DNA from: a virus
Length of the DNA stretch: 51,635 nt
Virus record (IMG/VR): IMGVR_UViG_3300001398_000005
Span: 1 to 51,635 of that record
Direction: 5' to 3' (one strand)
In this document: positions 29,596 to 51,635 of the stretch, in pieces
Position numbering within the stretch: the first letter of the stretch is position 1
Layout: each line of letters opens with the position of its first letter
Made by a program: the position numbers and the translations under genes
Notes under the pieces: generated by a model
Databases searched by the model: none
Told to the model about the DNA's origin: nothing
Seen by the model: the letters and a program-made list of their open reading frames with translations, nothing else

Positions 29596-30318
29596 TCAGT
29601 GGTTCGGCGTGCCGACCGACGCGCTGTTGCCAGCGAAGCGGAGGGAGTATCCAGCACCTGCCGTACCATTCGCTTGAACCGGCGACAGACCGGTGTCAAC
29701 GAACTCGCCGTATTGGCTGCGACCGTCGATGATGTCGGTCACAGTCACGCTTGAGTTCTCTGCGATGATAGCCGCATCCGAAGTCGTGCTCTTCGAGTAG
29801 CTGTTGATCCAGCAACCTTCGAAGAAGGTGAAGAGGGCACGAATTGGAGTCAGGAACTGATCTCCGTTCGCCTGAACAGATGCATTCGGAGCAGCCGAAA
29901 CGGTGACACCATCGAGGTCTTGGCTCGAAGCAATCTCCGAGATGACCATCTCTTGCTTGATGTCGAAGGGCCAACGGTGGTGCTTGAGCGAGCGCACGAG
30001 GCCGCTCACGCCGCCACGGTAGCCGACAGCTTGGAACACATCCACCGCGTAGAGGAGGGTCTTGTTCACGGTCAGTGTCATCGGCTCAGTCACCGACGGC
30101 ACTAGTTCGGCAACCTGATCACCGAAGCCGACGCCACGTACCGGATCGATGGTACGGGACTCGTCTTGACCGAACTCCGAAAGAGCACCGATCTGACGGA
30201 ACTCTTTCATTCCCACCATGAATGAAAAGACCTTGTTTTTTTGCGAAATTGCAGCACGAGTGGAAGGTGCTGTCCCTTGGCGATATATGTAGTTTGTGCT
30301 GTCAGATGGTTTGCCCAT
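29596..30318 (-). CDS. Tail tube protein
   Basis: This 240-residue protein has the size and position of a contractile-tail tube subunit: downstream of the sheath and upstream of the tail-assembly and tape-measure genes. Recognisable features are a strand-rich N-half (NKVFSFMVGMKEFRQIG, VTEPMTLTVNKTLLYAV), RWPFDIKQEMVISEIAS, and the typical segment FFEGCWINSYSKSTTSD near the C-terminus. The strong ribosome site AAGGAG lies 7-8 bases before the ATG, within the last codons of the HNH gene, and the two coding regions overlap by 17 bases. A hairpin terminator follows. High expression is expected for a tube protein and fits the strong ribosome site. Confidence 0.8.
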   Translation of the reverse strand: MGKPSDSTNYIYRQGTAPSTRAAISQKNKVFSFMVGMKEFRQIGALSEFGQDESRTIDPVRGVGFGDQVAELVPSVTEPMTLTVNKTLLYAVDVFQAVGYRGGVSGLVRSLKHHRWPFDIKQEMVISEIASSQDLDGVTVSAAPNASVQANGDQFLTPIRALFTFFEGCWINSYSKSTTSDAAIIAENSSVTVTDIIDGRSQYGEFVDTGLSPVQANGTAGAGYSLRFAGNSASVGTPNH

Positions 30319-31111
30319 GACTAATCTCCTTCACATTCAGCATGACCCAAATAGGTCTAGCGTGCTTAGTACTGTTGCAAGACTTACAAGCTGGTACAAC
30401 GTTCTCTGCCGTATGCGGGCCACCCTTTGATACAGGGATCACGTGGTCCATTGTGAGCTTAGTTTCAGCGAAACAGTAGGCACACTTATGATCGAACCAT
30501 TCAAGGATCCTCAACCACTCAGGCGCAGTCAACGTTTTTTCGACACGAGCCATATAGGCTGCACGGCGTGTCCATCCAGGACTCTTAACCTGATAACGCT
30601 TCTGGATCTTTCGGAAAGCTATCGGATTAGCAGCAATCCAAAGAGCATTTGATTGCCGATGACGCTTCTGATTGGTTCGGTACCAGCTCCTAGCTCGCTC
30701 CGCTGCTTCACGCTTTTGTTCGTTTGAACGTGAGGTCGAAGCCCACTGATCTCGTCTACGCTCAAGAATCTCTTCACGTTGAGGCCCATTAACATAGGCC
30801 TTACTAGCTTTGCCCTCGCACTCAAGACACCAACTGGATCGTCCATACAGCCCCCTGGCCTTCACTCGGAAGTCCGTAAGAGCCTTGTCGACATCACACT
30901 TAGGGCAGACCTTGTGGTCTGGTATCAGCACAAGCCGACGGCGCCTTCGACGTTCGACTTTCAAAGCCTCATACGCTACTGGGTCTTTCTTACGAAGACT
31001 TTGAGCGATCATAGTGCAAGACTTGCAAATCGATGCCGCACCAGTCCTAGGGTGGCGATAGAAGTCGTCCTTCTCGGACTTCTCCTTCAGGCAGTCTTCG
31101 CAAGTCTTCAT
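30302..31111 (-). CDS. HNH homing-type endonuclease with two zinc knuckles
   Basis: This 269-residue protein has two N-terminal treble-clef-like CxxC...CxxC units (about residues 4-32 and 71-100), a basic helical middle (EALKVERRRRRRLVLIPD) and a C-terminal HNH domain. The HNH signature reads CAYCFAETKLTMDHVIPVSK, then TAENVVPACKSCNSTKHAR, with the DH pair near residues 222-223, a central Asn and a CxxC zinc pair, so it looks catalytically complete. Free-standing HNH genes between virion genes are typical phage homing elements that cut related genomes near their own locus. It has no clear ribosome site of its own and lies 20 bases after the upstream gene. Confidence 0.88.
   Translation of the reverse strand: MKTCEDCLKEKSEKDDFYRHPRTGAASICKSCTMIAQSLRKKDPVAYEALKVERRRRRRLVLIPDHKVCPKCDVDKALTDFRVKARGLYGRSSWCLECEGKASKAYVNGPQREEILERRRDQWASTSRSNEQKREAAERARSWYRTNQKRHRQSNALWIAANPIAFRKIQKRYQVKSPGWTRRAAYMARVEKTLTAPEWLRILEWFDHKCAYCFAETKLTMDHVIPVSKGGPHTAENVVPACKSCNSTKHARPIWVMLNVKEISHGQTI
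30326..30331 (-). promoter_or_regulatory. Tube gene ribosome site inside the HNH gene
   Basis: AAGGAG on the minus strand, eight bases before the tube ATG (30316-30318), lies within the last codons of the upstream HNH endonuclease. The nuclease gene therefore carries the translation signal of an essential gene. Confidence 0.75.
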
Positions 31112-33083: not shown

Positions 33084-33351
33084 TTAGGATCGGTCGTAGT
33101 CCTGATCCGCGTACCGTGGGCCGCCGCCACCCCCCGCCATTTTTCAGCAGGTCAATCAAGTAGCTCGCCTGTCGACCGGTCAGCCGCCGAAGGCCATCCT
33201 TCGTGAAAGGGAAAGGCAAGCTCGGGAACTTGGAGGCATAGGGTGCCCATTGGTCCTTCGTCTTGATTCTGGAAGCCAAGAACCAAATGTAGTTGACCTG
33301 CTTGTCTGAAGGGCCCTGGCCACCAGTAGGAGCGTTCTCAGAAGAGGGTGG
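33084..33351 (-). pseudogene. 5'-truncated phage gene with frameshift at a G6 run
   Basis: The open frame begins without a start at the junction with the transposase fragment (PPSSENAPTGGQGPSDK). It continues with KQVNYIWFLASRIKTKD and LRRLTGRQASYLIDLLKNGG. This pattern (KQ--YI--L--R ... LT--EAS-LI--L) is familiar from small C-terminal domains of phage DNA-metabolism proteins. At a run of six G around 33130-33135 the frame runs on into the next gene. Removing one G gives a glycine stretch followed by PRYADQDYDRS and a stop at 33084, which leaves a normal spacer to the next gene. The 5' part is missing, presumably replaced by the mobile cassette. Confidence 0.6.
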
Positions 33352-33757
33352 TCAGCTGGATCCGGCCGTCCACGCGGGCCGCCAAATCTAGCATGAAATG
33401 GTTGGCGCAGTAGGCATCGCGGGCGCCGATGTACCAGGTGATCATGAGCTTGGTATCCGCGTCGATCGCGGTCCAGGTCCAGATTGAGCCGACGCCGGGC
33501 GTGTCCTTGAGTCGAGCCGGGACGTTCTTCTCTTTGGCGTAGCAGAACGACCAGATTTCGTCAGCCTGCACGCGCTTCGTAGACAGCCCGCGGAGCGCCC
33601 CGTCCTGGAACGCATCGCAGGCCGCGCCAAGCTCGGTCAAGAGCTTCAGAACCGTGTTCATGGCCACGCCCGTCATGCGGCACGTGGAGCGCAGCGAGCA
33701 GCCCTCGACCAAGCACGAGATCACGCGGGCGCGGGTTGCTGTATCGAGCCGGTTCAT
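33338..33757 (-). pseudogene. IS1-like transposase, C-terminally truncated
   Basis: I start it at ATG 33755-33757 (MNRLDTATRARVISCLVEG); a longer frame from a TTG at 33793 is open. The 139 residues follow the well-known family order: helix-turn-helix with GCSLRSTCRMTGVAMNTV, then RVQADEIWSFCYAKEKNV, then WTWTAIDADTKLMITW and the IGARDAYCANHF block, ending GRIQLTT. First and second catalytic Asp regions (ADEIW, IDADTK) are present. The final third, including the later catalytic Asp/Glu region, is absent because the frame ends two codons after QLTT where phage sequence resumes. It is therefore a dead remnant. It lies downstream of, and in the same direction as, the methyltransferase. Confidence 0.82.
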
Positions 33758-33800
33758 GCTCAACACTATGCGTGAGCGGTCGCGCATGAGCAACCGCAGC

Positions 33801-33819
33801 TAGGACAGGTAATGTCCTA
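33801..33819. repeat. Short inverted repeat between methyltransferase and transposase
   Basis: Arms TAGGACA and TGTCCTA (33801-33807 and 33813-33819) are perfect complements around a five-base spacer; the second arm includes the methyltransferase stop codon. It may be an insertion-sequence end or a weak terminator. No matching copy was seen at the other junction (about 33345). Confidence 0.45.
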
Positions 33820-35085
33820 CTTGGCCAGTCCCCGAGGCGCCTTTTTGGCGGCCTTTATAGCGGGTGACTGTTTCGCTCTGGAGACGATAGCAGTCATCAA
33901 CGAGCGAGCGTCCTTGCCGTCAGCGGCCAATGTGGCGGGCGCCAGAACGGTCAACGAATCGGCAGCCATCGGCGCAAGGCGCTTGATAGATGTCAGGATT
34001 GCATCCTTGCTGTTATCCACGCCGACCCATCGCCGATCCAATGCTTGCGCTGCGGCAAGAGTGGTCCCGGACCCGCAAAAGCAATCCAACACCAAATCCC
34101 CCTTGTTGGTCGATGCGCGCACAATTCTGTCCAATATCGTTTCGTTCTTCTCGGTTGGATAGCCAGTAATCTTCACGTTTTGATTGTGAGCATCACGGCA
34201 ATCCATCCAAAGGTTGCTGACCGAAACACCCTTGCTTTCGTCTAGGTATACCTTCTTGCGCGGGTTTCCGGTGGAAGACCAGTAGATCTCGCCCTTGGCG
34301 TCCAGCGCCTCGAGCTTCGCTGGAGTAGTCTTCCAATGCCTGCCTGCCGGCGGAGCCATGCCGCGCCATGGCTTTCCACAAGGACCATTGCGAACGCCAG
34401 GCGCATGCAGCGGCACTTTTTTGAAGCGGCGTTCCGTAGTTTCTTCAGCGTACGGGTACTCTCGGTCAGCGTGCTCATCGGTCCAAGGGGCAACCGGTCG
34501 GTTCCATACATATTGCGCGCTCTTCGTGTAGAAAAGAATGTAGTCGGAGACATCACCATATGTTTTATGCGTGTAGTTCTTCGAGCTGCATTTCCGGCGA
34601 GTGATGAAGCTGCGGAAGTTCTTTGCTCCGAAGATCTCATCCATCATCACCTTGGCGTGAAACACCATAGTCTCGTCCAGATGGACGTAGATTGACCCAT
34701 CGTCAGCCAGCATGCCCCGAAGCAGCTCAAGGCGCGCACGGAGGAATAACAGATAGCGCTCGCCCGTCAGCACGTCCGCGTAGGCCGGCTTCATTGCCTT
34801 GGACTGAAATACGCTGTTCGTGGCGTAAGGCGGATCAATATAGATCAGCCGGACCTTTCCGCAGATAGAGGAGTCGTTGCTCAGGCTACTGAGCACATCG
34901 AGATTGTCTGCCCAGTAGAGCCGGCTCTCTAGCTTTCCAGTGGCGGCGCTTCGCAGCCGAGTGAACGCTGGATCGCCCTTGCGTCGCGATCGCTCGCGAT
35001 CGAAGTCAACGAGCTTGCCTCGCTGCCCGGATAGAACGACGGAAGGGTCATTGAGCCACTCAATTTTTGGTACGCCGGTTGCCAT
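33817..35085 (-). CDS. DNA adenine methyltransferase, beta class (DPPY)
   Basis: This 422-residue protein is an N6-adenine (or N4-cytosine) DNA methyltransferase. The catalytic motif IDPPYATNS lies at residues 83-91 and the SAM-binding motif DCFCGSGTT at 334-342, so motif IV precedes motif I, as in beta-class enzymes such as type III Mod and many orphan phage methylases. Other expected pieces are GSIYVHLDE, DYILFYTKS and WVGVDNS. No restriction gene is adjacent, suggesting an orphan enzyme that protects phage DNA or a transferred cassette. Base composition looks richer in CG dinucleotides than the neighbouring tail genes. It is followed by the truncated transposase and preceded by a broken small gene whose stop is four bases upstream. 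Confidence 0.92.
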   Translation of the reverse strand: MATGVPKIEWLNDPSVVLSGQRGKLVDFDRERSRRKGDPAFTRLRSAATGKLESRLYWADNLDVLSSLSNDSSICGKVRLIYIDPPYATNSVFQSKAMKPAYADVLTGERYLLFLRARLELLRGMLADDGSIYVHLDETMVFHAKVMMDEIFGAKNFRSFITRRKCSSKNYTHKTYGDVSDYILFYTKSAQYVWNRPVAPWTDEHADREYPYAEETTERRFKKVPLHAPGVRNGPCGKPWRGMAPPAGRHWKTTPAKLEALDAKGEIYWSSTGNPRKKVYLDESKGVSVSNLWMDCRDAHNQNVKITGYPTEKNETILDRIVRASTNKGDLVLDCFCGSGTTLAAAQALDRRWVGVDNSKDAILTSIKRLAPMAADSLTVLAPATLAADGKDARSLMTAIVSRAKQSPAIKAAKKAPRGLAK

Positions 35086-40500: not shown

Positions 40501-41262
40501 CTAGGGTTTGAGCACAAGAGGAGTAGCGACAGGAAAAGCGTATCTGTATTGTCGAGTACGATTTCTCTCGGACATCTTAGACTTCTCCTGAATGAGCCTC
40601 TCTAGGTCCCACGTCCAGCGTCGAATAGTTGGCCTAGGAATACCGTATTGCCGTTCGGCGGCTCGAAAACCGTGCTCTAGGGCATATGCCGTAACTTCAG
40701 TGACTACCTCATCAGAGTACTTACGCTTCGAAGCGCTCAACTTTGCCCTGGAGGCATCGGATAAAGGGGGCCTATTACGACTCCCCTCGGCCTGCTTCAA
40801 CCTAGTCTCAAGACTAGAGACAGACCCTCGTTTAGTGTGGCTGACTTTCTCCCGCAATGCCTTGGCTTTCTGGTCATCAGATGCATGCCAAGCCTTAAGA
40901 GTCTGGCTAATCTGCTCCAAGACACTGTCGGGAGCACGCACCCCTAATGACCCCTCCCCACCACTAGTGCTGTTGTAACCTTTCTGAGGATTGCGTGTGT
41001 CATATTGCTGGATAAGTGCGATTTCCCTAGCACAAGCAGCTTGCCAGGTTGGTACATGGGCCACTACTTCCCAAACAAAGGCATTGGCACCGTACTTCCG
41101 CAAGGCTCGATGGAAGTAGTAGGGGGAACCCCTACTAGCTGAATTGAGGTGTGCTCTTTTGCGCACCTTCAGATTTTTGGACGTAATGCCAATGTAGATC
41201 TTGCCGTTAACAGAGCATGTTGCCACGTACACAACAGCCTCACCATCGGCGGCCCCTCTCAT
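40501..41262 (-). CDS. GIY-YIG homing endonuclease
   Basis: I start this gene at ATG 41260-41262, which overlaps the upstream stop (TGATG); a TTG one codon earlier is also open. The N-terminal ~95 residues are a GIY-YIG nuclease: VVYVATCSVNGKIYIGITS holds the two tyrosine motifs (first one degenerate), the catalytic Arg is likely in KVRKRAHLNSA, and the catalytic Glu lies in ACAREIALIQQY, followed by GYNSTSGGEG. The C-half carries a NUMOD3-like segment (LSDASRAKLSASKRKYSD) and a helix-turn-helix (GFRAAERQYGIPRPTIRRW) that would read the target DNA. Free-standing enzymes of this type move by cutting homologous sites. It sits between a zinc-ribbon protein and the sheath gene. Confidence 0.9.
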   Translation of the reverse strand: MRGAADGEAVVYVATCSVNGKIYIGITSKNLKVRKRAHLNSASRGSPYYFHRALRKYGANAFVWEVVAHVPTWQAACAREIALIQQYDTRNPQKGYNSTSGGEGSLGVRAPDSVLEQISQTLKAWHASDDQKAKALREKVSHTKRGSVSSLETRLKQAEGSRNRPPLSDASRAKLSASKRKYSDEVVTEVTAYALEHGFRAAERQYGIPRPTIRRWTWDLERLIQEKSKMSERNRTRQYRYAFPVATPLVLKP

Positions 41263-41684
41263 CAAGTCTCGCCTTTTTGTTTGGCACGAATCTCTTTGAC
41301 CTCTTTGGCCAGACCCTTTCGGCCCTTGATGAGGCCATCTGACCCGGCCTTGTATTCGATGTAGTCTTTGCCGGTTTCCCGAATCAAAGCGTGGGTTCCA
41401 CCCTTTTTCCGTACCTTGGACTTCACCACTTCCCTGGCAGCATGCTCCTGCCAGCGCTTATCCGCGTCACTGCCCACAGCATAATCCGCCGTAGGATAGT
41501 CATGCTTGGACACCCCAGAGTTGGCCGGGGCCTTACCTCCTGGGGCAAAAGCGAACCCAAAGCCCTCCCAAACCCTAGTGGCGTCTTTGCCACAAGCAGG
41601 GCACTCATGGGTCTTGTGCTCACCCATCTTTAGGGTGCGGGTAAATTGGGTCTCGCAGGCACACTCAAAAGTGAATTTCGGCAT
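41262..41684 (-). CDS. Small zinc-ribbon protein
   Basis: This 140-residue protein begins with a zinc ribbon of the FmdB/phage type: FECACETQFTRTLKMGE, then CPACGKDATRVWEGFGFAF. Four cysteines (positions about 8, 10, 28, 31) can hold one zinc ion. The C-terminal half is Lys/Arg-rich helix (EVVKSKVRKKGGTHALI, GRKGLAKEVKEIRAKQ). It is coupled to the genes on both sides by one-base stop/start overlaps. It could be an assembly factor or a nucleic-acid-binding protein. Its place between the putative tail terminator and the sheath suggests a tail-assembly role. Confidence 0.65.
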   Translation of the reverse strand: MPKFTFECACETQFTRTLKMGEHKTHECPACGKDATRVWEGFGFAFAPGGKAPANSGVSKHDYPTADYAVGSDADKRWQEHAAREVVKSKVRKKGGTHALIRETGKDYIEYKAGSDGLIKGRKGLAKEVKEIRAKQKGET

Positions 41685-42853: not shown

Positions 42854-43882
42854 TCACTTGTCGGATTCGTGTTCTTCCGAAGCCAGTACTAGCATGCCCT
42901 CAGCCACCGCCGTCATCGGGTCCTTGGCGATACGGATCTCGCTGATCTGAATCGGGAACCTCTTCTTGACGGTATCGAACTCTTCCTTGAATATTTCGAG
43001 AAAGCCTGCCGCCTTAGTGGTACCGCCGGAGACGATGAAGGGGATGGGCTCTGGAAGGCTGACATCGTTCTGCACCTTCTTGAATTGAGCCGCCACGTTC
43101 TGTAGGGTGTAGTTGATGAGGGCCCTCACGTAGAGAACGATGGCCTGCTCCTCACGTCCGTTGGGCGTGCGAAGGTCGACACCCTTCTCTTTGATGGCGC
43201 ACATCTGGGAAGCCGTCTTACCCATGGCCTTGGCCGACTGAGCATCGATCCAATCCCCACCACGAGCTAGGGCGAACTCCAATGCCTTGTTCGCCTGGTA
43301 GGACAGGGCGATGTTCGCCATACCAGCACCGAAGCTCACGGCCAGTCCGGAGAAGCTCTCCTCGGCACACTGGCTGTAGATGATGGCCATGGCCTCGTTC
43401 ATGGGGTGGGCCGAAAAGCCCGCGTCACGGACGATCTTACGGAAGACTTCCGTGTGATAGATCACGTCCTGTGAAGGGTCATCGATAGGGGCCGCAGGGA
43501 CGCTGTAGAAGCAGTGTTCACTGTCCACCTGAGGGTCGCCCAAGACCTGATTGATCAAGAGGCTCAAGACCTCCTGGGCGTCTATTTCACCAGCGGCGAT
43601 GAGACCGCGGCTGAGGGGTCGACGAGCCTCCCGCTTGAACAAGTTTGCCATCGTCAAAGCTGAGTCACCCAGTACCAACAATACGTTGTCAGATTCTCGC
43701 TCCACATAATCGACCTTGGACATCTTCAAGCTGCGCTTGGCGTCAGGGTCGAGGTCCAAGAAGGCGTCACGGACACGCTTGGTGACAACGCCGTTTTCCT
43801 TGGTCCTGGCGGACACAATATTCATTGTGCCGATGTCTAAGCCAATTCCTAGAGTGTTTCCTGGCTTTGCTTCATTTTTCAT
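42854..43882 (-). CDS. Actin/MreB-like ATPase
   Basis: This 342-residue protein belongs to the actin/Hsp70/MreB ATPase superfamily. The phosphate-1 loop is GIGLDIGTMNIVSA (residues 12-25), the connect region contains NEAMAIIYS (about 162-170), phosphate-2 is AVSFGAGMANIALS (181-194), GGDWID follows at 208-213, and the adenosine motif is PFIVSGGTTKAAGF (281-294). The end DPMTAVAEGMLVLA matches the MreB-type last motif. All nucleotide-binding elements therefore look intact. The length matches MreB or ParM rather than Hsp70. Phage actin homologues form filaments (for example in DNA segregation), but one inside a neck/tail operon beside a Dps-like gene is unusual. An AGGA site lies eight bases before the ATG. 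Confidence 0.85.
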   Translation of the reverse strand: MKNEAKPGNTLGIGLDIGTMNIVSARTKENGVVTKRVRDAFLDLDPDAKRSLKMSKVDYVERESDNVLLVLGDSALTMANLFKREARRPLSRGLIAAGEIDAQEVLSLLINQVLGDPQVDSEHCFYSVPAAPIDDPSQDVIYHTEVFRKIVRDAGFSAHPMNEAMAIIYSQCAEESFSGLAVSFGAGMANIALSYQANKALEFALARGGDWIDAQSAKAMGKTASQMCAIKEKGVDLRTPNGREEQAIVLYVRALINYTLQNVAAQFKKVQNDVSLPEPIPFIVSGGTTKAAGFLEIFKEEFDTVKKRFPIQISEIRIAKDPMTAVAEGMLVLASEEHESDK

Positions 43883-45691: not shown

Positions 45692-47056
45692 TTAATATAC
45701 GATGTTAGCCCATGTGATCGTGCGGCCGCGAAGCTCCCGTTCATCAGGGATCTCAGGCTTGTCTGTAATCTGAGCTGGGGAATTCAATGGAGGCACCGAC
45801 AACTGAGCCTGGTTAGGCAGGCCTCTGCTAGGGTTGTCCATCGGGACTAGGTAGCGAATGTCCTTCTCATCCAAGTGGCCAATGTTGAAGTGTTGCTGCA
45901 ACACCATACCACGATTAGTTGGCATCCTCACAGGGCCTATGGCATAGCGATCTCCGTTGATCTTGACAATGAAGTCTCGTTGGGAGAGCAATGGACTAGG
46001 GCCGCTCCAAACTTCGTAGGCGTGCTCTACGGTCCTACCAGTATTCTGCTGAGCGACCTTCCGCTCCATGTCGTCAGGAGCAATGATCAAATCGTAGGGC
46101 CCTTCGTAACCTCCCACAATGCCTGTATAGTAGCAGATCTGGCAGTCCCCCAGAGGCTGATGGTGCGTAGTCGTGTTGTAGCAAGGACAGATAGTGCCAA
46201 CGTTCTTCTTGATGAAGACCTTCACGCGCTCGCCACCTTGATCCAAAATCCAGTGATTTCTGCGAACAGCCTCCCGCCAGGCCCAGTCGAGCTTTTCTAT
46301 TTCCGAGTTGCTCGTGAAAGCAGCCCTTGCCAACTGCGTCTCAAGAAGTTCCCGGGGATCTGAGGGTCCCGCACCGTCAGTGTTGATCATCGTACCCACC
46401 GTGGTCACTCGGTAGAAGATACGCTGAGCCAAGTCCGTTCTCAGCAACGACCTACTGTACCGATAGCTCACAGTTACGACACTGCTGGGGCCAGGTACTG
46501 TCCCCAGGTCTTCGGTCTGCGTTGTGACGTTAGGATACGGGTTCGGGTCTATCTCGACCTCCCAAGCCTCTCCAAACACTCTAGCGAGCCTCGCTGTCAT
46601 CCCGTCGATCTGAACCTCCACATCGGAGATGGCGTTCGCATAGACCGCTTGAGAGCCTTCCTTGACGATCGGCCCCAACTGTGTGCGGAAGACGTACCTG
46701 GGGGCGTTCATCCCCGCTGCAACGTCTTCGCCACGCATGACCCACATGTCGTCAGTCACGACCTCATCAATGACCAAGGCGTTCTCTGTCTGGTCCCTCC
46801 AAAATGTACCCCCTAGAGGGTATTGGTTGATGCGGGTGTACGGCCCAAACTCGGAATCGAACGAGCGATAGATGTTGACGCCGCAAATCTGGAAATTGCC
46901 GTTGACGGCCAACTGAGAGGGGTCAGTCCACGACAGGTCGAAAACACCTGGCTTGTAGCCGCTCGTCATGAACAAGTTGAGCGGGGCCGCAGGTTCGGCG
47001 GCCTTTGTCAACTCAAGCGTGGACGGATTCCGGTCTCGGTTTGAGGCGTAGGACAT
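45692..47056 (-). CDS. Neck/virion protein with Fn3-like domain and CxC..CxxC cluster
   Basis: I start at ATG 47054-47056 (MSYASNRDRNPSTLELTK), the first ATG with a GAGAGG site upstream (11 bases). ATG 47075-47077 and TTG 47087-47089 are alternatives. The N-terminal ~100 residues form an Fn3-like domain (GVFDLSWTDPSQLAVNG, CGVNIYRSFDSEFGPYTRI). A central helical region follows (IEKLDWAWREAVRRNHWILD), then a cysteine cluster: TICPCYNTTTHHQPLGDCQI and CYYTGIVGGYEGPYDL, with Cys at about 290, 292, 305 and 308. This cluster probably binds zinc and recalls neck/head-closure proteins of large myoviruses. The Arg/Asn/Pro-rich C-terminus looks disordered. Role inferred from position. Confidence 0.65.
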   Translation of the reverse strand: MSYASNRDRNPSTLELTKAAEPAAPLNLFMTSGYKPGVFDLSWTDPSQLAVNGNFQICGVNIYRSFDSEFGPYTRINQYPLGGTFWRDQTENALVIDEVVTDDMWVMRGEDVAAGMNAPRYVFRTQLGPIVKEGSQAVYANAISDVEVQIDGMTARLARVFGEAWEVEIDPNPYPNVTTQTEDLGTVPGPSSVVTVSYRYSRSLLRTDLAQRIFYRVTTVGTMINTDGAGPSDPRELLETQLARAAFTSNSEIEKLDWAWREAVRRNHWILDQGGERVKVFIKKNVGTICPCYNTTTHHQPLGDCQICYYTGIVGGYEGPYDLIIAPDDMERKVAQQNTGRTVEHAYEVWSGPSPLLSQRDFIVKINGDRYAIGPVRMPTNRGMVLQQHFNIGHLDEKDIRYLVPMDNPSRGLPNQAQLSVPPLNSPAQITDKPEIPDERELRGRTITWANIVY

Positions 47057-47097
47057 GGCTGGGTGGAACCTCTCCATCCAGCCAACCAATAAGAAAA

Positions 47098-47776: not shown

Positions 47777-49351
47777 TCAGACGCTGAGGAAAGTGTGTAC
47801 CCGTTCGTTGACTTCCTGCGGATTCTGCTTGAATTCTGACTCCCAGACGATCAGACACCGGTATCCAGATTCCGCATAAGCTGCAACCAGCTCCTGCTCG
47901 TGGTCAAAATCGGCCTTCCCCGTAAAAATCTTGGAGTGCCAGTAGTCCCCAAACAACTCAACAATCTTGGTCACACCCTTCTTTGGATGCTCCGAGTCTG
48001 GGCCGGGCAAGATGAAGTCAGGGTTCTTATGGTGCCCCAGTTTTGGTAGCCACCTCCAGTAGGCACCGTTGCCGACATACATCAAAGTGGGGTGCGCTGA
48101 GGCAAAGCGACGTTCGAGAAGATTTGGGCCTGGTCTCGACATCTTCTCTAAATGAGCCAAGGCGTATTCGCGATTCATCATCGGATGAGGTACGCCGTAC
48201 TTTGCAATATTGTCCTGTTTATGGGTATCTGAGCTAAGAAAATAGGGGCGGCCGTACCTATCGGTATTGGTCTGTCTTGATGCCTCTTTCACAAACTCTG
48301 CTTGAAAGACACAGTCAACCCCATATCGAACCCGCACTGTCTCAATCAAACGAGCGTAGACTTCAGGGCTCTGTAGGGGATTGTCGACGCCGTATCGTTC
48401 TTGACACGTTTCCCTACGTGCCTCTAAAAACTCAGCCAAAAGCAAAGGATGGGTGACTCCATACTTACGAACGAAGGTAGCCACCAACCTATCCCAAAAG
48501 CCGTCGATCTTTGCCGAATGATCCACACCATACTTTTCAACCAGGCGCTCTCGAATTACTGTACGTCCCACCTCTGAGGCAAAGAAATGGGATCCGTAGT
48601 TCTCAATCATCGTCTCCAATTGCTGCCTACGAATCTCTGGGTGCTGAGCCGTCCACTCGACCCCCCACCGCTCAAGATTGGTTTGCCTAGCCCTCTCCAC
48701 AACCCCTGGTGAGCATGATGGGGTAGGGCCACCATAGAGAGCCTCATTGGTAGCTTCAATTCGGCGTCTAATGGCCGGGGCTGCCAAAATCTCCTCTACG
48801 CCATACCTCTCCAAATTAGTCGCCTGAGTCTTTGAGCGTACTTCAGGACTCTGTTGAGGGTTCTCAACCCCAAACTTGTCTAGGTTTGTCTGTCGAATTT
48901 TCTCCTGAACCTCTGGCCAAGAGAACGGGTTAGCCTCTCCATACAGAGGTTTTCGATTGGCATCACCTGCCTCACGGACTTTAGTATACAGAGAAGACTC
49001 TCTACTGAATACGTTCTCTGCCCCATAGCGCTCCTTCAACGTTGCCTTCCGACGTGCCTCAGCCTCTGCAAGCTGCCTAGGATGGGCAACGTCTTGGCCA
49101 TAGTTTGCTTGAAGCGTCTTAGCCAAGCGGGCCATCTGCACCTCGCCCCTATCACGAGATTTCCACGAGGAGCACGTGGAGCGATGCCTCTTCATCTGAG
49201 TCATCGAAGTGGACTTGTGCCCGCACAGGCACGCCAAAGGCTTGACGGAGCCCACCTCTGATTGCCAGCCGGCACATACAGCCTTGTGGCGAGAGTTTAC
49301 GATATCGGAGTTAGGAAAGTGCTTTTGGCAGTGTTGGCAGACAGAAGGCAT
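47777..49351 (-). CDS. Repeat-array homing endonuclease with EDxHD/Vsr-like domain
   Basis: I start at ATG 49349-49351 (MPSVCQHCQKHFPNSD, 524 residues); the frame is open to a TTG at 49384. Two N-terminal Cys/His fingers are followed by about fourteen repeats of ~23 residues (residues ~78-404), with a consensus like TNLERYGVENPLQSPEVxxR. Repeats of this YGV type occur in phage homing-endonuclease-related proteins and probably lie along DNA. The C-terminal ~120 residues are a Vsr/EDxHD-type nuclease: NPDFILPG, then KIVELFGDYWHSKIF with the Asp/Trp/His pattern, then EQELVAAYAESGYRCLIVWE. All key parts seem present. The gene directly follows the C-terminal half of the split intein gene. Confidence 0.85.
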   Translation of the reverse strand: MPSVCQHCQKHFPNSDIVNSRHKAVCAGWQSEVGSVKPLACLCGHKSTSMTQMKRHRSTCSSWKSRDRGEVQMARLAKTLQANYGQDVAHPRQLAEAEARRKATLKERYGAENVFSRESSLYTKVREAGDANRKPLYGEANPFSWPEVQEKIRQTNLDKFGVENPQQSPEVRSKTQATNLERYGVEEILAAPAIRRRIEATNEALYGGPTPSCSPGVVERARQTNLERWGVEWTAQHPEIRRQQLETMIENYGSHFFASEVGRTVIRERLVEKYGVDHSAKIDGFWDRLVATFVRKYGVTHPLLLAEFLEARRETCQERYGVDNPLQSPEVYARLIETVRVRYGVDCVFQAEFVKEASRQTNTDRYGRPYFLSSDTHKQDNIAKYGVPHPMMNREYALAHLEKMSRPGPNLLERRFASAHPTLMYVGNGAYWRWLPKLGHHKNPDFILPGPDSEHPKKGVTKIVELFGDYWHSKIFTGKADFDHEQELVAAYAESGYRCLIVWESEFKQNPQEVNERVHTFLSV

Positions 49352-49400
49352 CCTGCATAGTAACCAAAACTCCAATAAAGTCAAGGAACTAAAAAAAACC

Positions 49401-50039
49401 TTAGAACCCTACGAACTGCCTGGGGCTTAGCACACCCCCACCTACATAGGGGCCAAAGCTGGATCGGATGCCAATCCCGAACTTGGGCTGCTGCAAGCCT
49501 CTGACGAACTTGACCGTGGCCTTGGCTTTGTCGAGCTGCGAATCGAACTGATCCTTCAGCGTCTGGTAGAGAGATTCATACTTGGATGCTTTTTCGATTT
49601 CCAGAGAAACGCCTCCAATAGAGTAGGAATTGTGGGCTAGGATACCGTTCGCAAGCACGAAGTTCTCTGGCCCGGGAACAGACAGATCGTAGGTGTGCTC
49701 TTGAGCTGGCAGTCTCTCCACGTTTGCCACAACAGCATCTTCTAGAACCCCGTCCACAGATGCGATCACATCTCCTACTCTTATCTCCTCAGCTTGTACC
49801 GGAGTCACACCATCACCGGATCTGAAAAACAGAGAGTGATCTACCGTCGTATCCACGAAACGTCCGTCCTGGACTGTAGTTCGGGTCATACTTTTATGTG
49901 AGGTGTTGTGCCGCATCACATCAGAGATTTTGCAAAGACTAGTAGTTCCAGATGTGGGGTCTACAGCCAAAACTCGAAGCTGTCCTGCCCTAAAAGCCTC
50001 ACGAATGGTGGTCTTACGTGTTTCTATGCATATTGTCAT
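49401..50039 (-). CDS. Split-intein C-half fused to C-extein of a virion protein
   Basis: This 212-residue protein starts with the C-terminal intein part (residues 1-137). Block B is TTVDHSLFF with His68. Block F/G is EHTYDLSVPGPENFVLANG followed by ILAHN, with the terminal His136-Asn137 pair and Ser138 as the +1 nucleophile. Early strands (LRVLAVDPTSGTTSLCKISD) and EEIRVGDVIASVDG complete the Hint fold, which lacks only block A. That block is encoded by the gene at 50986-51635. The C-extein (75 residues) begins SYSIGGVSLEIEKASKYESL and ends RQFVGF. Splicing would join it to ...INWVSDEF. The ATG overlaps the stop of the endonuclease gene (ATGA), so it should be translated by coupling. Confidence 0.88.
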   Translation of the reverse strand: MTICIETRKTTIREAFRAGQLRVLAVDPTSGTTSLCKISDVMRHNTSHKSMTRTTVQDGRFVDTTVDHSLFFRSGDGVTPVQAEEIRVGDVIASVDGVLEDAVVANVERLPAQEHTYDLSVPGPENFVLANGILAHNSYSIGGVSLEIEKASKYESLYQTLKDQFDSQLDKAKATVKFVRGLQQPKFGIGIRSSFGPYVGGGVLSPRQFVGF

Positions 50040-50989
50040 AAGACACCTCGTTCAGAGAGAGTTTTTACAGTCTCCGTAACTTTACGGATGCACCATTCTA
50101 AATCAGCCTTGATCTCATGCTCAAGGAGGCGGACAATAGTCCACCCACGATTGTTCAGATAGGTTGTTTTACTAGCATCGTACTGTTTGATGCGGCCCAC
50201 TCCCGGAAAGCCACACTCTCCACAGCCATGCCAGTAACACCCATCAATCTCTACAGCCAAACGTAGATCCGGGCGGGCCTCATCTATGGAGTAATACCCG
50301 GTCTCATATTCAGTAATGAACCCCACAAGGCCCGAGGCCTCAACAGCTTCTTTGACTCTTGCATGAGGTTTAGTGAATTTTCGCTTGATATGCCTACGGG
50401 CGTACGCAGCGGATTCGAGGACCTCCTCCCAATGCTCACCCATCCAAGCATTTTGGACAATAGGTACCTCTCCGGAAGCCCACCTAGCTTTAGTCTCTCT
50501 AGAACGAGCGGCTTTTTGCTGGGGGTCGCTATTAAGTGTACGGAGATGCTCCGAAGCCTGCTCACGGTAACCGGAAGCTTGCAATTTTAGAGCAGCCACT
50601 GCAATTTGCTTTCGAGTGACTTCCCCTGCCTCAGTCTTAAATCTCGCTTTGAGCAACTCAGATTGGGCTGTCTTCTGGGCTTCTGTTTTCGTCTTATTAC
50701 AAGACGCGGCCAGCAGAGCCGCTCCGGGGTGCGCATTCAAATACGCCTCTAGTGAGATACCTGCACAAGCTGAAAGATGCTTACTAGACAACTGGGTCTG
50801 AAATGCTCCACACTCCAGACACACTATGTAGTGCGTACCCTCAACAAGATCCTCAAAGCCCACTATTTTTGGACGAAGAGGGGTGCTATTTGAGGCTATT
50901 CTGAGAATACCGCTGTCAATTAGCGTGCCCACTGTCCTAAAGTTGAACCCGTATTGAAGACAGGCTTGTCTTTTAGACAGAAGTTTCAT
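50036..50989 (-). CDS. Vsr/EDxHD-like homing endonuclease within the split intein locus
   Basis: This 317-residue protein has an N-terminal DNA-binding helix region (LSKRQACLQYGFNFRTVGTL), a Ros/MucR-like finger (CLECGAFQTQLSSKHLSAC), a helical linker (AARSRETKARWASGEVPI), and a C-terminal Vsr-type nuclease. The nuclease motifs are SIDEARPDLRLAVEIDGCYW followed by HGCGECG, then KTTYLNNRGWTIVRLLEHEI. These contain the Asp/Glu and WHG residues of very-short-patch and EDxHD homing nucleases. Its ATG overlaps the stop of the intein N-half gene and its stop overlaps the ATG of the C-half gene, both ATGA. Dassa and co-workers described such fractured genes: a split intein whose halves flank a free-standing nuclease. 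It would spread the interrupted locus. Confidence 0.88.
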   Translation of the reverse strand: MKLLSKRQACLQYGFNFRTVGTLIDSGILRIASNSTPLRPKIVGFEDLVEGTHYIVCLECGAFQTQLSSKHLSACAGISLEAYLNAHPGAALLAASCNKTKTEAQKTAQSELLKARFKTEAGEVTRKQIAVAALKLQASGYREQASEHLRTLNSDPQQKAARSRETKARWASGEVPIVQNAWMGEHWEEVLESAAYARRHIKRKFTKPHARVKEAVEASGLVGFITEYETGYYSIDEARPDLRLAVEIDGCYWHGCGECGFPGVGRIKQYDASKTTYLNNRGWTIVRLLEHEIKADLEWCIRKVTETVKTLSERGVL

Positions 50990-51635
50990 GATTCCTCGTG
51001 GATTATAGCATAAAGTTCTTCAATAGGAAGAATGACTTCCTCCCCGTCGCCCAAGATGACTTTAACGGGTGTTTCGCCCCCAACGGAAAATTCATCCGAC
51101 ACCCAGTTGATTGCCAAAGCCAGCAAGGCGTACATCATGGCCCCGTTGATCACTAGCGTTCGCCATTCTGGGTAATCTCGAACCAAGATGTCGACGGTAG
51201 GGATGGGCGTTCGCGGAGGAGCAGCTGTGACCATGTCCAGAGACCTGATGAGGTACTCTCCTAGTTCCTCATCTTCCCAGATGTAGCCAAAGACCTTGTT
51301 GAATTGACTAATGGTTTCTTCGTGGGCCGGTGGACGAAAGTGGTAATTCCTCGAAGGATTCTGGTCTCTTAGGAGTATTCTCAAGCTTCTAATCAGTGCC
51401 GCCTCTGAGCAGTTGACGACAGACACCAAGCCCGAGGTCACCTTGTCGATGACATTGAATTGTTGAACTACCTGATTGACCTTACCACCCAAGGTCTCTC
51501 GGAACGTCCAACGAAGGTGGTAGTCGCCTATATTGGCGTCCAACGGGATGATAATGCTTGCATAGTACAGCCCCACCGAATCGTTGGCGGGGTCCCTACG
51601 AGGTACCCCCAATAAGACTTCACGACCTGTGGTCA
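50986..51635 (-). CDS. Virion protein N-extein with split-intein N-half (5' end outside window)
   Basis: The frame is open to the right edge (…TTGREVLLGVPRRDPA), so the true start lies outside. The visible extein has a strand-rich Ig-like part (DSVGLYYASIIIPLDANIG, YHLRWTFRETLGGKVNQVV) and a helical part (NGAMMYALLALAINWVSDEF). The last 33 residues (50989-51087) are intein block A: SVGGETPVKVILGDGEEVIL then PIEELYAIIHEES, matching the usual (C/S)xxGdTxVxvxdG...IeEL pattern but starting with Ser. The gene ends there, so the intein N-part is very short. With the C-half it would yield a spliced product of at least 257 residues. Extein function unknown; position suggests a neck or head-tail protein. 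Confidence 0.85.
   Translation of the reverse strand, partial: TTGREVLLGVPRRDPANDSVGLYYASIIIPLDANIGDYHLRWTFRETLGGKVNQVVQQFNVIDKVTSGLVSVVNCSEAALIRSLRILLRDQNPSRNYHFRPPAHEETISQFNKVFGYIWEDEELGEYLIRSLDMVTAAPPRTPIPTVDILVRDYPEWRTLVINGAMMYALLALAINWVSDEFSVGGETPVKVILGDGEEVILPIEELYAIIHEES

What the first reader, a model, noticed from the sequence alone, without database searches (positions are those of the whole stretch)
49401..51635. Atypically split intein (33-residue N part, 137-residue C part) in a phage virion gene
The gene ending at 50986 closes with intein block A; the gene starting at 50039 supplies the rest of the Hint fold, including block B (TTVDH) and the terminal HN|S. Joining the exteins gives a smooth sequence across NWVSDEF|SYSIGGVS. 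Most natural split inteins break near the endonuclease site, giving an N part of ~90 residues and a C part of ~35. Here the break follows block A, as in the few atypical ones described (AceL-TerL, VidaL type). The host protein is a virion protein of unknown function, not a terminase or replication enzyme.
Basis: partly seen in the sequence, partly recalled or inferred. Interest (0 to 1): 0.9.

Follow-up and report, generated by a model that had tools for sequence, protein, structure and literature searches.

The report
Split intein breaking a phage gene
A phage particle gene is broken in two by a DNA-cutting gene, and the ends of the two protein pieces form a self-splicing element that should rejoin them; relatives in many other large phages show this breakage spreading, multiplying and healing.

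Summary
Confirmed, and larger than reported. It is a Ser1/Ser+1 class-1 intein with motif NX His, TxxH and terminal HN. A contiguous relative aligned with the window's halves is predicted as one Hint fold (pLDDT 97.7, pTM 0.90). The host is a head-tail-connector-like virion protein; uninterrupted homologues read DEF|DYSIGG.

More than 20 phage contigs carry this intein at the same residue, with the endonuclease between the halves, fused to Int-C, degenerate or absent; one has the genes in swapped order. One contiguous form keeps the former ribosome-binding site and ATGATG of the Int-C gene inside its frame, so it descends from a split form. A second, Cys1 intein split at about the same point sits elsewhere in the same gene; five loci need two trans-splicing reactions. 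All carriers have Ser/Thr at +1 and Asp/Glu at +10; empty genes mostly have Asp at +1. Splicing and homing are inferred, not shown. New variant of the known 'fractured gene' arrangement.

The parts
51088..51633 (-). N-extein of the head-tail-connector-like protein, 182 residues present, 5' end cut off by the contig end
   Evidence: aligned to intact homologues L003-L005
50989..51087 (-). Int-N, 33 residues, Ser1, block A and N2 region; stop codon at 50988-50986
50986..50989 (-). ATGA stop/start overlap of the Int-N gene and the endonuclease gene
50036..50989 (-). putative homing endonuclease, 317 aa, DUF559/MTES_1575/Vsr-like with Cys/His-rich N-terminal part
   Evidence: DUF559 5.6e-6; conserved residues; relatives sit in the same place
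50036..50039 (-). ATGA stop/start overlap of the endonuclease gene and the Int-C gene
49629..50039 (-). Int-C, 137 residues, motif NX (VMRH), block B (TTVDH), blocks F and G ending HN
   Evidence: PF14890 3.6e-14
49401..49628 (-). C-extein SYSIGGVSLE..., 75 residues, and stop
   Evidence: 67% identical to the C part of intact homologues

Best explanation
This is a fractured virion gene. Two genes encode the N and C parts of one head-tail-connector-like protein, each carrying a fragment of a Ser1 class-1 intein split after residue 33. A putative homing endonuclease gene lies between them, with 4-base stop/start overlaps on both sides. Inferred by homology to characterised class-1 inteins: Int-N and Int-C associate; motif NX His and block B His activate Ser1; an N-O acyl shift is followed by transesterification to Ser+1; Asn cyclisation releases the intein and joins ...DEF-SYSIGG.... 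The endonuclease probably cuts intein-free alleles of co-infecting phages, so that repair copies the whole Int-N/endonuclease/Int-C cassette into them. Shown here: anatomy, conserved catalytic residues, predicted fold, intact and contiguous homologues, patchy distribution, and one contiguous form derived from a split form. Not shown: splicing, cutting, homing.
For: PF14890 on the C gene 3.6e-14, joined halves 1.9e-15. Ser1, NX His, T-x-D-H and terminal His-Asn invariant in 22 family members. AF2 of contiguous relative L028 with the window's halves as alignment rows: pLDDT 97.7, pTM 0.90; Foldseek best hit TFIIB mini-intein 3.7e-10. Intact homologues across the joint. The same Int-N/endonuclease/Int-C order at the same residue in four relatives found from the endonuclease alone. 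L027 keeps intact halves with the C gene upstream of the N gene, which only trans-splicing could join. dN/dS 0.23 for Int-C and 0.22 for the endonuclease in L014/L031. Carriers scattered on the host tree, 15 changes, at least 13 forced by well-supported branches.
Against: No biochemical evidence. The window's N gene is truncated upstream, so an intact start is not seen. The match to Vsr-type nucleases is weak by sequence (Vsr 0.0045; I-Bth0305I 3r3p E 0.098). The scatter of carriers could also come from many losses rather than transfers.
Confidence: 0.93

Rival explanations
1. A decayed intein: insertion of the endonuclease gene ended splicing, and the two fragments act as separate subunits or the protein is dispensable.
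For: Genes broken by an endonuclease without splicing are known in phage (a ribonucleotide reductase, cited in PMC10448857). The endonuclease interrupts the intein itself.
Against: All catalytic residues are invariant in 22 members. Int-C evolves under constraint, dN/dS 0.23 and 0.27 in two pairs. +1 is Ser or Thr in every carrier, against Asp in 56 of 61 empty genes, which makes sense only if +1 acts as a nucleophile.
Confidence: 0.05
2. The +1/+10 pattern is not compensation in the host protein but co-conversion: the intein brings a few dozen bases of flanking DNA with it at each transfer, and with them Ser at +1 and Asp at +10.
For: Both positions lie within 30 bases of the insertion. In close empty/carrier pairs identity drops in the first 60 bases after the junction. 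L020/L025 show a real replacement tract around these sites.
Against: The drop is about what the two changed codons alone would give (my estimate). Position +7 and the codon choice vary among carriers. Five empty genes keep acidic +10 with Asn or Ser at +1; no gene has acidic residues at both or at neither.
Confidence: 0.4
3. Contiguous forms are ancestral, and split forms arose from them repeatedly by endonuclease insertion, so the present contiguous forms are not healed fractures.
For: Contiguous forms are scattered among split ones (4 changes on a weakly resolved tree). Endonucleases of two families occupy about the same point in two related inteins, which suggests repeated insertion.
Against: Contiguous L109 contains at its seam the ribosome-binding-site-like sequence and ATGATG of the Int-C gene of its split relatives L104 and L108, so at least that one is derived from a split form. 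L020 (contiguous) and L025 (split) share a 99% identical Int-C. Both directions may occur.
Confidence: 0.25

Closest known systems
Fractured genes with split inteins and free-standing endonucleases (Dassa et al. 2009, doi 10.1093/nar/gkp095; text not held, content recalled)
   Same: A gene broken by a split intein with an endonuclease gene between the halves; mainly phage; Vsr-related endonucleases in about half of the loci (recalled).
   Different: Those hosts were DNA synthesis and repair enzymes (recalled); here a virion protein. Here the break is near residue 33 of the intein, the intein is Ser1, and fused, swapped, doubled and healed forms exist.
PolB16 OarG split intein (PMC10189870)
   Same: Atypically split, Ser1/Ser+1, motif NX His, phage-type metagenomic source.
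   Different: Int-N of 15 aa against 33 here; polymerase host; only a distant sequence match (8cpn, profile E 1.7e-4); no endonuclease is mentioned in that paper.
AceL-TerL and VidaL atypically split inteins (VidaL: PDB 6vgv)
   Same: Short Int-N, long Int-C; same fold (6vgv found at 4.6e-7).
   Different: Published atypical Int-N fragments are given as 15-25 aa (PMC11923092); Ser1 here; hosts differ (recalled).
MIJ3 jumbo phage PolB split intein (PMC6892783)
   Same: Jumbo phage, Ser1-type block A, endonuclease gene between the halves.
   Different: Its Int-N includes blocks A, N2, B and N4 (typical split point); HNH endonuclease; polymerase host.
Archaeal TFIIB mini-inteins (PDB 5o9i, 5o9j)
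   Same: Closest solved Hint domains by sequence and among the closest by fold.
   Different: Contiguous natural inteins whose endonuclease domain sits at the canonical site.

Membership tests
Class 1 intein | Hint fold | tested here: met
   AF2 of contiguous relative with window halves aligned, pLDDT 97.7; Foldseek hits to inteins
Class 1 intein | Nucleophile at 1, TxxH in block B, terminal His-Asn, nucleophile at +1 | tested here: met
   S1, TVDH, HN, S+1 in the window; invariant in 22 members apart from S/T at +1
Cysteine-independent (Ser1) inteins | Motif NX histidine preceded by Arg or Lys | tested here: met
   VMRH in the window; His in 22 of 22, preceded by R or K in most and Q in a few; motif defined in PMC10189870
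Split (trans-splicing) intein | Two separate reading frames that together hold all motifs | tested here: met
Split (trans-splicing) intein | Ligation of the exteins in trans | not testable with these tools
   needs expression; L027's swapped gene order is indirect support
Atypically split intein | Int-N far shorter than about 100 aa, with the break near block A | tested here: met
   33 aa, break after the N2 region; slightly beyond the published 15-25 aa
Fractured gene (Dassa 2009) | Free-standing endonuclease gene between the halves of a split intein | tested here: met
   50989-50036
Fractured gene (Dassa 2009) | Host is a DNA synthesis or repair enzyme (recalled as the known set) | tested here: not met
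   host matches head-tail connector phrog_17327; this widens the kind rather than excluding it
Vsr-related homing endonuclease | Sequence membership | tested here: inconclusive
   DUF559 7 of 7 members, best 5e-8; Vsr 2 of 7, best 0.0034, below cut-off
Homing endonuclease | Cuts the intein-free allele at the insertion site | not testable with these tools
   needs a cleavage assay
Head-tail connector protein | Sequence and fold membership | tested here: inconclusive
   phrog_17327 in 13 of 35 members, best 3.2e-5; fold like phage G gp165; PDB matches weak

The most novel reading that the evidence does not exclude
One phage structural gene is a live record of intein fracture. Endonucleases of two families entered two related inteins at about the same non-canonical point (residues 30-37), tolerated because the chain is broken there. 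The broken gene then passes through further states: endonuclease fused to Int-C, swapped gene order, two fractures giving three polypeptides, and healing to a contiguous intein by deletion through the Int-C ribosome-binding site. The host protein shifted an acidic residue from +1 to +10 so that the intein can have its Ser/Thr nucleophile.
Probability: 0.5. Interest if true: 0.85.

Novelty: new variant of a known kind. Interest (0 to 1): 0.75.

Why it matters
Two open questions become testable: how split inteins arise and whether they can revert, and why endonucleases in inteins sit at one conserved site (called puzzling in PMC6801210). Here is a family with the endonuclease at another site, always with a chain break between Int-N and the endonuclease, and with a sequence scar that gives the direction split to contiguous. 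It also supplies more than 20 natural Ser1 inteins with short Int-N fragments and natural Cys1/Ser1 pairs within one protein, useful for protein ligation, and a clear case of a host protein matched to its intein at +1/+10.

Tried and rejected
Frameshift or read-through joining of the halves: rejected, 950 bases of a separate conserved gene lie between. Chance Hint similarity: rejected by E-values and 22 family members. Terminase or replication enzyme as host: rejected, the extein matches neither. A single reading frame holding Int-N, endonuclease and Int-C was looked for: none among the carriers found. A long co-conversion tract at the junction was sought by sliding identity: only a dip in the first 60 bases, not decisive. 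A PDB sequence search with the host profile gave nothing. Hits of the endonuclease profile to papillomavirus E6 zinc-binding chains were taken as a spurious match of the Cys-rich part. Dassa 2009 is not held. The endonuclease has only three weak matches among deposited phage records.

Full report
Observation. The minus strand at the window's right end carries three genes in order: 51633-50986 (N-extein and a 33-residue Int-N, 5' end cut by the contig), 50989-50036 (317 aa), and 50039-49401 (137-residue Int-C and a 75-residue C-extein). Each neighbouring pair overlaps by ATGA. A 4-base overlap (GTGA, ATGA) also occurs at both junctions in L010 and at the second junction in L011, which suggests translational coupling.

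The intein. Pfam Intein_splicing matches the C gene at 3.6e-14 and the joined halves at 1.9e-15. The nearest solved structures by sequence are archaeal TFIIB inteins. It is a Ser1/Ser+1 intein. It has the motif NX histidine (VMRH) described as specific to cysteine-independent inteins and critical there (PMC10189870). In an alignment of 22 family members Ser1, the NX His, T-x-D-H of block B and the terminal His-Asn never vary. AlphaFold2 on the contiguous relative L028, with the window's and other split halves as separate alignment rows, gives pLDDT 97.7 and pTM 0.90. Foldseek places it with the TFIIB Mvu mini-intein (E 3.7e-10), Aes123 PolB1, VidaL and other inteins. The split falls in the loop between helices 22-30 and 36-42, after the N2 region. 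Published atypical Int-N fragments are given as about 15-25 aa (PMC11923092), so 33 is a little longer.

The endonuclease. The 317-aa protein matches DUF559 (5.6e-6), MTES_1575 and, weakly, Vsr. Invariant across relatives are CxxC...H...C near the N end, then D236-E237, E247, G250-C251, H254, C256, C259, D271 and K274. This fits a Vsr-like nuclease with a zinc-binding N-terminal part, by family resemblance; activity is not shown. With the window's own endonuclease as query, all four relatives first found sat at the same residue of the same gene, between Int-N and Int-C or fused to Int-C.

The host. Intact homologues (296 aa in L003 and L005) read NWIADEF|DYSIGGVSL. Relatives include a 'head-tail connector' of phage Tunturi_5 and phage G gp165. 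PHROG phrog_17327 (head-tail connector) matches 13 of 35 aligned members, best 3.2e-5. The predicted structure is a beta domain plus helices of moderate confidence (pLDDT 75.7, pTM 0.48), related by fold to gp165. Its role as a connector is likely but not settled.

The family. A scan with the C-gene profile gave 79 loci. Of 82 rows analysed, site b (the window's site) is filled in 21 and empty in 61. States of site b: split with the endonuclease between (window, L009-L011, L015, L016, L018, L022, L024, L025, L029 and others); endonuclease fused in frame to Int-C (L012, L030, and L092 with a shortened endonuclease); only a relic of the endonuclease (L021); split with none (L026); the C gene upstream of the N gene (L027); contiguous (L017, L020, L028). 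L043 has a contiguous intein of this family at a third site (GPF|SGRG) of the same gene. Further scans added L099, L101, L104, L108 and L109. No reading frame holds all three parts.

A second intein in the same gene. Site a (RDN|CPDR or SPDR) carries a Cys1 intein. In 12 of 13 loci it is split with an Int-N of 30-37 aa; L059 is contiguous. The endonuclease gene found there in most loci is of another family: the L006 copy matches TnsA-like PF08722 at 1.2e-9. In L015, L021, L026, L099 and L108 both sites are split, so three polypeptides must be joined by two reactions.

Direction. L104 and L108 (split) and L109 (contiguous) share nearly the same intein. In L109 the Int-N codons ...AAAGAGGAG run straight into CGTATGATGGAT. 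In the split forms CGTATGATGGAC follows AAAGGAG, the apparent ribosome-binding site of the Int-C gene, and holds its ATGATG starts. The contiguous form therefore arose by deletion between two AAAGGAG-like stretches, and former start codons now encode internal Met-Met. L020 and L025 are 98-99% identical phages around this gene: L025 has site a empty and b split, L020 has a filled and b contiguous. The stretch from site a through Int-N is only 81% identical while Int-C is 99% identical, as expected of a replacement tract.

Host adaptation. All 21 carriers have Ser or Thr at +1 and Asp or Glu at +10. Of 61 empty genes, 56 have Asp at +1 and a non-acidic residue at +10; the other five have Asn or Ser at +1 and Asp at +10. 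The six carriers added later fit too. In 13 of 13 independent contrasts on the host tree the two positions change together (sign test p 0.00024). In the host model +10 (residue 231) starts a long helix, but the loop before it is of low confidence. Compensation or co-conversion can explain the pattern; I lean slightly to compensation, with the five swapped empty genes as possible former carriers.

Distribution and selection. Carriers are scattered over the host-gene tree: 15 changes, at least 13 forced by well-supported branches, shuffled mean 18.5. That fits frequent gain and loss. For the pair L014/L031, dN/dS is 0.23 for Int-C, 0.22 for the endonuclease and 0.24 for the N-extein.

Known and new. 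The arrangement is the 'fractured gene' of Dassa et al. 2009 (not held; recalled). Cysteine-less and atypically split inteins are known singly (PMC10189870, PMC11923092). A split intein with an HNH gene is known in a jumbo phage polymerase (PMC6892783). Several intein sites in one gene are known in haloarchaeal MCM (PMC10643990). New here, as far as the held literature shows, are the virion host gene, the endonuclease at the residue-33 site in two intein families of one gene, the endonuclease-Int-C fusions, the swapped order, the double fractures, the healing scar and the +1/+10 swap. PMC6801210 states that all endonuclease domains in inteins occupy one site and calls this puzzling; the endonucleases here sit elsewhere, but never within an unbroken chain.

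Limits. All relatives are metagenomic contigs or phage records; assembly was not checked independently. Nothing biochemical was tested. The intein tree is weakly resolved (3 starred branches of 18). Several loci are the same or nearly the same contig fetched twice (for example L010 and L013, L018 and L019), so counts of loci exceed counts of phages.

Noticed in passing
47777-49384: A second endonuclease-like gene (DUF7487 6.8e-44; PHROG homing endonuclease 6.6e-36) lies directly downstream of the C gene. The same family sits in the same place in L005, L006 and L009 but not in L003, L004 or L010.
   Followed up: partly
L010:8205-10841: The homologue of window gene 45692-47089 (virion-like) carries a further contiguous intein with AP2 and LAGLIDADG domains; the window's copy has none.
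   Followed up: partly
42854-43882: Strong match to Volactin (PF25216, 2.1e-75), a viral actin family.
   Followed up: no
30302-31111 and 40501-41265: Further endonuclease genes among the structural genes: HNH (3.7e-13) and GIY-YIG (2e-11).
   Followed up: no
33338-35085: A DNA methylase (N6_N4_Mtase 1.9e-44) beside a short reading frame that looks like an IS1-type transposase remnant by eye; no Pfam match for the latter.
   Followed up: no
L092: A contig binned as a Candidatus Altiarchaeales MAG carries the same fractured phage gene, with a shortened endonuclease fused to Int-C; phage DNA in the bin, or a virus of that host.
   Followed up: partly
L012:7665-10559: A 964-aa protein with many DUF7487-like repeats follows the fractured gene on the opposite strand; by eye only.
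   Followed up: no
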